Of a stretch of 64,000 bases of DNA, positions 23,366 to 34,933 are shown in pieces. This DNA comes from Mycolicibacterium fortuitum subsp. fortuitum (GTDB lineage: Bacteria > Actinomycetota > Actinomycetes > Mycobacteriales > Mycobacteriaceae): contig NZ_AP025518.1 in assembly GCF_022179545.1 (NCBI RefSeq), positions 1,364,001-1,428,000 of the forward strand. Direction: 5' to 3'. Within the stretch, counting starts at the first letter, position 1. Each line of letters starts with the position of its first letter. Below the pieces are notes generated by a model. That model made no database searches and was not told the origin of the DNA. It saw only the letters and a list, made by a program, of their open reading frames with translations. Both the position numbers and the translations under genes were made by a program.

Positions 23366-23380
23366 TACCCTATGGGGGTA
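23366..23380. promoter_or_regulatory. RicR-type operator TACCC-N5-GGGTA
   Basis: TACCC-TATGG-GGGTA, a perfect match to the M. tuberculosis RicR palindrome. It overlaps a TATCCT -10-like hexamer and ends 10 bases before the ATG of the rhodanese lipoprotein, so the mRNA is probably leaderless and the repressor would block RNA polymerase directly. Confidence 0.75.
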
Positions 23381-23390
23381 TCCTTTCAGC

Positions 23391-23828
23391 ATGTTCACCA
23401 GGATCTGCATCGGTGCACTGACGGTTGTCGCCGCCATGTCCCTGGCATCGTGCGGCGCAACCGCGGAGTCGCCCTCGGCCGCGACTGCCGGACCGACGAC
23501 GGCGGGTATCACCCTCCACCGGCTGGTCGGCGCTGACGAATTCGCCACTGCCGTAGCCGAATCCGATCGGGTGACGATCAACGTCCATGTGCCATTCGAA
23601 GGCGACATCGCCGGCACGGACCTGTCTGTACCTTTCGATCGGATCGCCGAGCAGGCTGACCGGTTGCCCGCCGATCGCACTGTGCCGATCGCGATCTACT
23701 GCCGAACCGGCCCCATGAGTGCGACAGCCGCCGAGGCGCTGAGGTCGCTGGGATACACCGACGTGGTCGAACTCCAGGGTGGAATGAAGGCCTGGCAGGC
23801 CAGCGGCCGACCGCTGGCGGGGGGCTGA
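23391..23828 (+). CDS. Rhodanese-domain lipoprotein
   Basis: A 145-residue protein with a lipoprotein signal (hydrophobic segment ending in the lipobox LASC, Cys at about 21) and one rhodanese domain. The active-site loop is YCRTGPMSATAAEAL, and the GYTDVVELQGGMKAW ending is typical of single-domain rhodaneses. It would act outside the membrane, handling sulfane sulfur or binding metal through the active Cys. The start at 23391 is preferred over upstream GTG/ATG codons because it gives the signal peptide directly and fits the TATCCT promoter. Control by the RicR-type box points to copper stress. Confidence 0.85.
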   Translation: MFTRICIGALTVVAAMSLASCGATAESPSAATAGPTTAGITLHRLVGADEFATAVAESDRVTINVHVPFEGDIAGTDLSVPFDRIAEQADRLPADRTVPIAIYCRTGPMSATAAEALRSLGYTDVVELQGGMKAWQASGRPLAGG

Positions 23829-23833
23829 GGGGT

Positions 23834-24046
23834 ATGACGAATACGACTGAGGCGCTGATTGACGCGCTCGCTGCTGCCGGTGTGCGCCTGGACGCCTACG
23901 TCCGCGAAGAACGGGAAATCGGTGATTTTCAATTCGCGCTGCTGGACACCATTGCGCTCGCCGACGAGCAACAGTTGAGGTTGCCCAAGGCTCTGCTGAG
24001 TGACGTACGGGCAGAATTCGAGCACCGCATGTACTTCCGTCCCTGA
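23834..24046 (+). CDS. Small hypothetical protein
   Basis: A 70-residue acidic, largely helical protein (MTNTTEALIDALAAAG at the start, FEHRMYFRP at the end) beginning five bases after the rhodanese stop, with a GAGGGGT-like ribosome-binding site. It has no Cys and no membrane segment and was not recognised. Position and spacing suggest it is cotranscribed with the rhodanese lipoprotein and shares its RicR-type operator. Confidence 0.6.
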   Translation: MTNTTEALIDALAAAGVRLDAYVREEREIGDFQFALLDTIALADEQQLRLPKALLSDVRAEFEHRMYFRP

Positions 24047-24125
24047 ATCGAAAATGCGCGGCCTCGTCGACGAAACCCTCAGGCGCGTCGAGCAACGCGC
24101 CGACGGGTGAGTCGAATTACGCGAG

Positions 24126-24212
24126 TGTCAAGGATCAACCGAAGCAGGTGTAAGGCATCGGCCGAAACACTGTCACCCATCAACCGGAGACAAAACGTCA
24201 AGCATCACCCGA
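24126..24212. repeat. Four degenerate direct repeats, 22-25 bp apart, next to tRNA-Arg
   Basis: Copies at 24126-24142, 24149-24165, 24171-24187 and 24196-24212 share the pattern TGTCAaGcATCaaCCGA (for example TGTCAAGGATCAACCGA and CGTCAAGCATCACCCGA). A regular 22-25-bp period of short similar boxes is typical of multi-site transposase or integrase binding regions at insertion-sequence ends. No transposase gene is present, so this is probably an orphan end of a lost element, 18 bp from the 3' end of the tRNA gene. Confidence 0.6.
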
Positions 24213-24230
24213 GCTAATACAAACAAAAAG

Positions 24231-24303
24231 TGCCCCCGGCAGGATTCGAACCTGCGACACCGGCTTTAGGAGAGCCGTGCTCTATCCCCTGAGCTACGGG
24301 GGC
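24231..24303 (-). tRNA. tRNA-Arg (anticodon CCT)
   Basis: On the minus strand a complete cloverleaf can be folded. The acceptor stem is GCCCCCG with CGGGGGC and discriminator A; the D arm follows TAGCTCAG; the anticodon stem CGGCT/AGCCG closes the loop CTCCTAA with anticodon CCT; the T arm contains GGTTCGAATCC. The CCA end is not encoded. It reads AGG codons. The gene borders the accessory region to its right. Confidence 0.95.
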
Positions 24304-34677: not shown

Positions 34678-34729
34678 GTCCTTCCCCGGATTCCGCCAAA
34701 CGGCATGGCCAGCTCGGTCTTGCCTTGGA

Positions 34730-34754
34730 CCCCGGCCGTGGTTCACGGCCGGGG
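34730..34754 (+). terminator. GC-rich hairpin after mmpL
   Basis: CCCCGGCCGTG-GTT-CACGGCCGGGG, a perfect 11-bp stem with a 3-base loop, 53 bp after the mmpL stop. It has no T-tract, as is common for mycobacterial terminators. A second perfect 9-bp hairpin (34784-34807) follows. Confidence 0.65.
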
Positions 34755-34783
34755 GTGGCCGAACCACCGCAGTGTCCGAAGGC

Positions 34784-34807
34784 GGTGGGCTCGTCGATGA
34801 GCCCACC
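34784..34807 (+). terminator. Second hairpin after mmpL
   Basis: GGTGGGCTC-GTCGAT-GAGCCCACC, a perfect 9-bp stem with a 6-base loop. With the hairpin at 34730 it probably insulates the copper operon promoter at 34880 from mmpL read-through. Confidence 0.55.
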
Positions 34808-34879
34808 CAGCGCGTATGGGACGGATTTGCGCGATGCCCAGCACGTGCAGTAGGTCGATCACACTGCGGGCGCTAGCAC

Positions 34880-34907
34880 TTGACGAAATGCAGTGGGGGG
34901 GTATTGT
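34880..34907 (+). promoter_or_regulatory. Promoter of the copper-efflux operon
   Basis: TTGACG (34880-34885), a 16-base spacer and TATTGT (34902-34907) form a good sigma-A-type promoter. The operator palindrome lies 10 bp downstream, so a bound repressor would block promoter escape. Confidence 0.55.
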
Positions 34908-34916
34908 TTTGAGCAG

Positions 34917-34933
34917 ATACCCCCAGGGGGTAT
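34917..34933. promoter_or_regulatory. RicR/CsoR-type operator of the cop operon
   Basis: ATACCCCCAGGGGGTAT is a perfect 17-bp palindrome that contains TACCC-CCAGG-GGGTA (34918-34932). It precedes the CopZ-like gene by 20 bp. G/C-tract palindromes of this kind are bound by CsoR-family repressors and released by Cu(I). Confidence 0.8.

What the first reader, a model, noticed from the sequence alone, without database searches (positions are those of the whole stretch)
23366..34932. A RicR-type copper regulon spread over 11.5 kb around a ricR-like gene
TACCC-N5-GGGTA occurs perfectly at 23366, 27925, 30840 and 34918, with one mismatch at 27828, 29554 and 31250. The repressor at 24722 has the Cys38-His63-Cys67 Cu(I) triad and a RicR-like C-terminus. 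The boxes stand before a rhodanese lipoprotein, a DHA2-exporter/USP/DUF732/DUF5078 operon, a small ORF plus EamA exporter, mmpS-mmpL and a copZ/His-rich protein/ctpV operon. Known RicR targets in M. tuberculosis do not include such exporters, so this looks like an expanded copper-response island.
Basis: partly seen in the sequence, partly recalled or inferred. Interest (0 to 1): 0.75.

Follow-up and report, generated by a model that had tools for sequence, protein, structure and literature searches.

The report
Copper-repressor island with conserved exporters
A mycobacterial gene island appears to be switched on by copper through a shared repressor site, and one of its membrane exporters carries the same kind of site in many other actinobacteria, which points to an unrecognised part of bacterial copper defence.

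Summary
The boxes are real and not chance. The genome holds 8 perfect TACCC-N5-GGGTA sites; 4 lie in this 11.6 kb and 3 of the other 4 at copper-type loci, one before the canonical ricR. The island (DHA2 gene as marker) occurs in 6 of 297 genus genomes, own included. In aligned intergenic regions box positions are invariant in 58 of 60, other columns in 420 of 1230. One of the seven listed sites, 27828, fails this test. The local repressor is a RicR paralogue (RicR2) without a box of its own here.

The main result goes further. Of 55 DHA2-relative loci fetched outside the genus (of 70 matched), 48 have a box within 400 bp upstream (reversed motif: 1) and 38 have copper genes close by: a recurrent, unnamed CsoR/RicR-type partner of copper resistance. 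mmpS-mmpL plus DUF5078 is a boxed third copy of the MmpS4/MmpL4/Rv0455c siderophore-export module; the other two copies have no box. EamA probably descends from a csoR-eamA arrangement whose csoR decayed here. Copper control is inferred; binding, induction and substrates are untested.

The parts
23366..23380 (.). perfect box, ends 10 bp before the rhodanese lipoprotein start
   Evidence: box 10/10 invariant in the 3 species aligned, rest 31/176
23391..23828 (+). rhodanese-like lipoprotein (lipobox LASC read from the sequence)
   Evidence: Pfam PF00581; seen in 3 of the 6 island genomes
24722..25012 (+). RicR2, CsoR-family repressor, C38-H63-C67; paralogue of the canonical ricR at genome position 195160; no box of its own
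25044..25484 (-). DUF5078 protein, Rv0455c family (siderophore-secretion factor), Cys42 and Cys133 present
25495..25821 (-). DUF732 protein; paired with DUF5078 at two further MmpS-MmpL loci of this genome
25821..26327 (-). universal stress protein
26373..27815 (-). DHA2-family MFS exporter (480 aa); relatives carry the box and often sit beside copper genes in other Actinomycetes
27828..27842 (.). one-mismatch site, probably not an operator
   Evidence: spacing broken in M. houstonense, 7/10 invariant
27925..27939 (.). perfect box of the DHA2 operon
   Evidence: invariant in the 5 species aligned, spacer included
28266..29273 (-). EamA-family exporter
29391..29485 (-). decayed csoR-like remnant between the box at 29554 and eamA (limits approximate; an intact csoR stands directly before eamA in G192)
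   Evidence: match significant in three relatives, only E 5.9 in the window by itself
29554..29568 (.). one-mismatch box of eamA; TAC-N9-GTA kept in the 4 species aligned
   Evidence: 8/10 invariant
30201..30764 (+). AhpD/CMD-like protein, in 4 of 6 island genomes; homologues beside DHA2 in 6 of 55 loci outside the genus
30840..30854 (.). perfect box about 520 bp before mmpS; its transcript is unclear
   Evidence: 10/10 invariant in the 3 species aligned
31250..31264 (.). one-mismatch box of mmpS-mmpL; the mismatch itself (TACTC) is conserved
   Evidence: 10/10 invariant in the 4 species aligned
31373..31798 (+). MmpS, nearest solved relative MmpS4
31795..34677 (+). MmpL, nearest solved relative MmpL4
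34880..34907 (+). sigma-70-like promoter TTGACG-16-TATTGT before copZ; in relatives a second box overlaps the corresponding spacer and -10
   Evidence: the scan found 1 such site where shuffles give 2.6, so weak by itself
34918..34932 (.). perfect box of copZ-HisR-ctpV
   Evidence: 10/10 invariant in the 5 species aligned
34954..35163 (+). CopZ-like copper chaperone
   Evidence: Pfam HMA
35165..36130 (+). His-rich protein with an N-terminal hydrophobic stretch, no known family
   Evidence: no match
36149..38461 (+). CtpV-like Cu(I) P-type ATPase
   Evidence: TIGR01511 539 bits, cut-off 397

Best explanation
This is a copper-derepressed resistance island. Without excess copper a CsoR/RicR-type repressor (RicR2, the canonical RicR, or both) sits on TACCC-N5-GGGTA boxes over or next to the promoters; Cu(I) bound at Cys38-His63-Cys67 releases it (inferred from the family). 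Five promoters then open, perhaps a sixth at 30840. CopZ and CtpV hand over and pump Cu(I) (inferred from family); the rhodanese lipoprotein and the His-rich protein act outside the membrane (inferred). The DHA2 exporter is a recurrent partner of this copper ATPase operon in Actinomycetes and most likely exports copper in a bound form or a copper-stress metabolite (inferred). MmpS-MmpL with the Rv0455c-type protein is a copper-controlled copy of the siderophore-export machine and probably secretes a metal-binding lipid-like molecule (inferred). Shown here: the sites, their conservation, the gene families, the link across genera. Not shown: binding, induction, substrates.
For: Four of 8 perfect genome sites cluster here; three of the other four lie before ricR, between a His-rich/ctpV-like operon and a two-component system, and before a CopB-like ATPase. 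The motif exceeds its control over 198 genus genomes, 1299 to 426. Island in 6 of 297 genomes, own included, with boxes kept; box columns 58/60 invariant, rest 420/1230. G192 has an intact C-H-C csoR directly before eamA. DHA2 outside the genus: 48 of 55 fetched loci with a box, control 1 of 55; 38 of 55 with a copper gene within 1.5 kb (55 of 70 matches fetched). Plasmids: 11 of 11 actinobacterial records with a box, 10 of 11 with copper-type genes. RicR2 keeps Arg20 and Gln44, which align with S. lividans CsoR residues needed for DNA binding.
Against: No expression or binding data. One-mismatch sites are at background genome-wide. The EamA box is imperfect in 3 of the 4 species aligned, and the csoR remnant is not significant in the window by itself (E 5.9). 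RicR2 lacks a box of its own in 4 of 6 islands. MmpSL boxes are confined to the island: 24 of 24 non-island relatives fetched lack one. G252 has no mmpS-proximal box. The rhodanese gene was seen in 3, CMD in 4 and EamA in 5 of 6 islands. 7 of 55 DHA2 loci lack a box, as do both Paenibacillus plasmids. Sigma-70-like promoters are not in excess (1 found, 2.6 expected).
Confidence: 0.77

Rival explanations
1. The boxes are used only by the canonical chromosomal RicR; RicR2 is redundant or senses something else.
For: Canonical ricR has its own box and RicR2 here does not. The two proteins are very alike over the DNA-binding and metal-binding parts.
Against: RicR2 is present in 6 of 6 island genomes, and the relatives I read keep the C-H-C triad. 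Its clade elsewhere sits among several boxes, with a box 93-179 bp upstream in L021, L026, L032, L059, L064 and L079 and 338 bp upstream in L068 and L069.
Confidence: 0.3
2. The near-identical 27925 and 29554 sites (CATACC-N7-GGTATG) belong to another regulator, such as a TetR protein for drug exporters.
For: The spacer of 27925 is conserved in all five species aligned, unlike that of the copZ box, and both sites read CATACC-N7-GGTATG in the window.
Against: No second regulator family was found in the 20 island ORFs that I scanned. In G192 DHA2 and csoR-eamA share one-mismatch G-tract boxes of different sequence. DHA2 relatives outside the genus mostly have CCCC/GGGG-type boxes upstream.
Confidence: 0.12
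3. The exporters are ordinary drug exporters that happen to lie in a copper island; their boxes have little effect.
For: The nearest families are EmrB/EfpA-like, EamA and MmpL4-like, best known for drugs and siderophores (general knowledge).
Against: DHA2 keeps box or copper neighbours outside the genus (box 48 of 55, either 54 of 55). EamA was preceded by a csoR.
Confidence: 0.2

Closest known systems
RicR regulon of M. tuberculosis
   Same: Same repressor family and box (the box consensus is recalled, Festa 2011, not read); includes a transport protein Rv0849 and lipoprotein lpqS (PMC10470581, passages)
   Different: Here clustered in 11.6 kb around a RicR paralogue, with DHA2, EamA, MmpS-MmpL and Rv0455c-type genes; ctpV is listed under CsoR in M. 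tuberculosis (same passages)
CsoR regulon of Streptomyces lividans
   Same: TAC-N9-GTA operator with G-tracts, copZ-ATPase targets (PMC3902906, passages)
   Different: Three operators in that paper; no exporter of these families in the passages read
MmpS4-MmpL4 / Rv0455c siderophore secretion
   Same: Nearest solved relatives; DUF5078 genes are described as always neighbouring mmpS4-mmpL4 or mmpS5-mmpL5 (PMC9042941, passages)
   Different: Copper-type boxes; no IdeR-like site with 5 or fewer mismatches in the island (motif recalled; none at the two other modules either, so this does not tell them apart)
TbD1 mmpS6-mmpL6 locus of M. bovis
   Same: MmpS/MmpL pair linked to a copper response (PMC9048740, passages)
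   Different: Its deletion lowers expression of RicR/CsoR targets; no box before mmpS6 is described in the passages read
Rhodococcus plasmid copZ-HisR-ctpV-csoR clusters
   Same: DHA2 homologue (72-76%) divergent from the same kind of copper operon, with a box between in 7 of 7 Rhodococcus records
   Different: No MmpS-MmpL, EamA or DUF5078 homologue in the stretches read
SigG1 regulon of Streptomyces tsukubaensis
   Same: An MFS transporter and a copA/copZ copper locus appear in one stress response (PMC7730460, passages)
   Different: Sigma-factor control; relation of that MFS protein to this DHA2 family not tested

Membership tests
RicR (CsoR-family Cu(I) repressor) | Trns_repr_metal fold and RicR-specific model | tested here: met
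   PF02583 98.3 bits; NF052430 179.8 bits, cut-off 175
RicR (CsoR-family Cu(I) repressor) | C-H-C Cu(I) ligands | tested here: met
   C38, H63, C67
RicR (CsoR-family Cu(I) repressor) | DNA-binding Arg and Gln of S. lividans CsoR (R57, Q81) | tested here: met
   Arg20 and Gln44 by alignment; the numbering offset rests on recalled Cu ligands of that protein; need for R57 and Q81 from PMC3902906 (passages)
RicR (CsoR-family Cu(I) repressor) | Orthology to M. tuberculosis RicR (ilvD neighbour, own box; markers recalled) | tested here: not met
   No ilvD match in the window or the five island loci, no box; groups with 13 other rows, support 82/84
RicR regulon | TACCC-N5-GGGTA at promoters above background | tested here: met
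RicR regulon | Copper-reversible binding and induction | not testable with these tools
   needs bench work
MmpS4-MmpL4/Rv0455c export module | MmpS and MmpL of the 4/5 group with a DUF5078 protein close by | tested here: met
   DUF732-DUF5078 beside MmpS-MmpL at two other loci
MmpS4-MmpL4/Rv0455c export module | Secretion of siderophores | not testable with these tools
   substrate unknown
DHA2 drug exporters (EmrB type) | NCBIfam DHA2 model above cut-off | tested here: not met
   TIGR00711 208.8 bits, cut-off 230.2; the wider MFS_1 family is clear, 196.8 bits, cut-off 33.4

The most novel reading that the evidence does not exclude
The Cys-poor DHA2 exporters seen here form an unrecognised class of copper (or copper-ligand) exporters under CsoR/RicR across Actinomycetes, and the island adds a copper-induced copy of the siderophore-secretion machine that secretes a metal-binding lipid-like molecule under copper stress.
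Probability: 0.35. Interest if true: 0.8.

Novelty: new variant of a known kind. Interest (0 to 1): 0.62.

Why it matters
Known bacterial copper export rests mainly on P-type ATPases and RND systems (general knowledge). A DHA2 exporter that carries the copper-repressor box in many actinobacterial genera would be a missing regular part of that defence, testable in harmless soil strains. Copper control of an MmpS4/MmpL4/Rv0455c-type machine would tie metal stress to a secretion system so far discussed for iron. It also shows how a repressor paralogue can come with a gathered set of exporters.

Tried and rejected
27828 as an operator: rejected, spacing broken in M. houstonense. The inverted repeat at 30840 as a terminator (listed on the minus strand): rejected, the T-run is not kept in the relatives' sites; terminator-like sites as a whole are at chance (7 found, 6.6 expected). 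Riboswitch or known RNA before DHA2 or EamA: only the tRNA matched Rfam at gathering threshold. IdeR-like site with up to 5 mismatches: none in the island, nor in the two other MmpS-MmpL modules (motif recalled), so this test is uninformative. The perfect site at 3668596 (cobN and a sulfite-reductase-like gene) lies in a longer palindrome and is probably unrelated. EamA on plasmids: none at 1e-40. Conserved methionines in DHA2 as copper ligands: many columns found, but no non-copper DHA2 outgroup was aligned, so no claim; 69 of 74 sequences have no Cys. His-rich protein: no Pfam, NCBIfam or PDB match. Print: in the listings (titles and starts of abstracts) I saw nothing on box-controlled DHA2, EamA or MmpS4/L4-type genes; 56 and 78 held no paper. 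A CsoR meta-regulon of gut Firmicutes names no MFS protein ('mfs' 0 occurrences; PMC4938975, passages). The library holds open-licence papers only.

Full report
Observation. All seven sites are at the stated places. The genome (G000, 6,406,072 bases; the window is 1364001-1428000) holds 8 perfect TACCC-N5-GGGTA sites; the reversed motif gives 3. Four lie in 23366-34932. With 8 sites placed uniformly, 4 of 2,000,000 simulated genomes had four or more within 11,567 bp. One-mismatch sites number 85 (93 minus 8) against 102 for the control (105 minus 3), so by themselves they are background; three in this stretch against about 0.15 expected is still an excess. Over 198 genus genomes perfect sites sum to 1299 against 426 for the control; 174 genomes have more sites than control and 11 fewer.

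The other perfect sites. 195087 stands before the canonical ricR, near ilvD; 4571107 lies between a His-rich/ctpV-like operon and a two-component system; 6149745 lies before a CopB-like P-type ATPase; 3668596 lies between cobN and a sulfite-reductase-like gene inside a longer palindrome and is probably unrelated (gene names from my reading of the translations, not from a family search).

Repressor. The genome has three PF02583 genes. The window's has C38-H63-C67 and passes NCBIfam RicR by a small margin (179.8 bits, cut-off 175). I built a tree of 80 loci from genome contigs (the best 80 of 190) plus six added sequences (its output was cut in the middle, so I write from the part shown). The window's protein, three island relatives added by me and ten loci without ilvD nearby form one 14-row group inside the mycobacterial RicR proteins (support 82/84, modest), apart from the canonical RicR. 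No ilvD match lies in the window or in the five island loci of 20 kb. I call it RicR2. It has no box upstream in the window, G124, M. peregrinum or M. houstonense, but does in G252 and G192 and in several other loci of the group. Both paralogues keep the Arg and Gln equivalents whose loss abolished detectable DNA binding in S. lividans CsoR, so overlapping operator use is likely (inference).

Conservation. DHA2 at E below 1e-100 is found in 6 of 297 genus genomes, own included: the window, G124, M. peregrinum (G021), M. houstonense (G231), G252 and G192. RicR2, USP, DHA2, MmpS, MmpL, CopZ, HisR and CtpV are in 6 of 6; EamA in 5; DUF732 and DUF5078 in 5 at 60% identity or more (G192 has them at 51% and 58%); CMD in 4; the rhodanese gene in 3 (20 kb read in each). 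G192 is rearranged. On alignments of six intergenic regions (3 to 5 species each; G192 in none, G252 in two, M. peregrinum not in the rhodanese and 30840 regions), specified box columns are invariant in 58 of 60, leaving out 27828 (7 of 10), spacers in 20 of 35 (27828 included), and the remaining columns in 420 of 1230 (summed by me; the boxless ricR2 region, 85 of 202, is not in the sums). copZ has two boxes 33-37 bp apart in the five relatives, one of the two a one-mismatch site in G124 and in G252; in the window the first has decayed. In M. houstonense that first box overlaps the spacer and -10 that correspond to the promoter-like site seen in the window at 34880-34907, a usual position for repression; the promoter scan by itself finds no excess (1 found, 2.6 expected).

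EamA. In G192 an intact CsoR with C-H-C stands directly before eamA, with two one-mismatch boxes between it and the divergent DHA2 gene. Between box and eamA, M. peregrinum, G124 and M. houstonense keep remnants of it (E 9e-8, 1e-4, 6e-4); in the window the corresponding stretch aligns at DNA level but scores only E 5.9 by itself. So eamA probably descends from a csoR-eamA arrangement. EamA at 1e-60 was found in 5 of 297 genus genomes and on no plasmid at 1e-40.

MmpS-MmpL and DUF5078. Nearest solved relatives are MmpL4 and MmpS4. The DUF5078 protein is of the Rv0455c family, which is needed for siderophore secretion in M. tuberculosis and whose genes are described as always neighbouring mmpS4-mmpL4 or mmpS5-mmpL5 (PMC9042941, passages). 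Its two cysteines, 42 and 133, are present. The genome has two more DUF732-DUF5078-MmpS-MmpL loci; neither has a box with 0 or 1 mismatch in the 8 kb read. MmpL relatives are in 294 of 297 genomes; of the 30 loci fetched, the 6 island ones have boxes and 24 of 24 non-island ones (58-73% identity) have none. Copper-type boxes at this module are thus, as far as I looked, specific to the island.

DHA2. Beyond the genus it is common: 45 of 301 family genomes and 27 of 394 class genomes at E below 1e-140, each count including the window's own genome and the two lists sharing two further genomes. Of 70 matches outside the genus, 55 loci were fetched (15 family matches, mostly the weaker ones, were not). 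Of the 55, 35 have a perfect box and 48 a box with at most one mismatch within 400 bp upstream; the reversed motif gives 1 of 55. 38 have CopZ, His-rich, CtpV or CsoR/RicR homologues in the 1.5 kb flanks, and 54 have box or copper gene. After removing near-identical DHA2 proteins, 45 of 52 have a box. On plasmids 13 records match at 1e-80: 11 of 11 actinobacterial ones have a box (3 of them a perfect one) within 400 bp upstream, and 10 of 11 have copper-type genes in the stretch read, though in Nocardia only the His-rich homologue; two Paenibacillus ones have no box but an annotated multicopper oxidase. Two Rhodococcus opacus records have nearly the same listed genes, so the records are not all independent. 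CMD homologues lie beside DHA2 in 6 of 55. This is the strongest new result: the exporter is a recurrent copper-regulon partner, not a local oddity.

What is known. Published RicR targets in M. tuberculosis include Rv0849, a transport protein (PMC10470581, passages), so exporters under RicR have a precedent. mmpS6-mmpL6 has been tied to a copper response (PMC9048740, passages). In the listings (titles and starts of abstracts) I saw no paper on box-controlled DHA2, EamA or MmpS4/L4-type genes; the library lacks most subscription journals, and a paper on the RicR regulon that I asked for was not held.

Mechanism. Repression by a CsoR/RicR-type protein released by Cu(I) is inferred from family, box and box position. 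What the exporters carry is unknown; I favour bound copper or a copper-stress metabolite for DHA2 and a lipid-like metal ligand for MmpS-MmpL, both unproven.

Noticed in passing
G000:C1:4059915-4060133 (L011): Third CsoR-family gene, preceded by rhodanese and TauE/SafE-like genes: a CstR-type sulfur sensor by context (label recalled, read from the translation).
   Followed up: no
G000:C1:3668596 (L006): A perfect box lies inside a longer palindrome between cobN and a sulfite-reductase-like gene, possibly a different operator.
   Followed up: no
24230-24303: tRNA-Arg(CCT) lies between the rhodanese gene and ricR2 here and, by my conversion of coordinates, in G124 and M. houstonense; none in the stretches of the other three. 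It may mark an insertion point.
   Followed up: partly
27843-27910: The leader between the 27925 box and the DHA2 start is unusually conserved and probably not coding (single-base indels); no Rfam match.
   Followed up: partly
plasmids H11-H16: RicR paralogues (73-77%) on plasmids of M. avium, M. intracellulare, M. lentiflavum and M. paragordonae.
   Followed up: no
genus genomes G120, G047, G074, G190: Some species carry 21-29 perfect boxes, suggesting much larger copper regulons.
   Followed up: no
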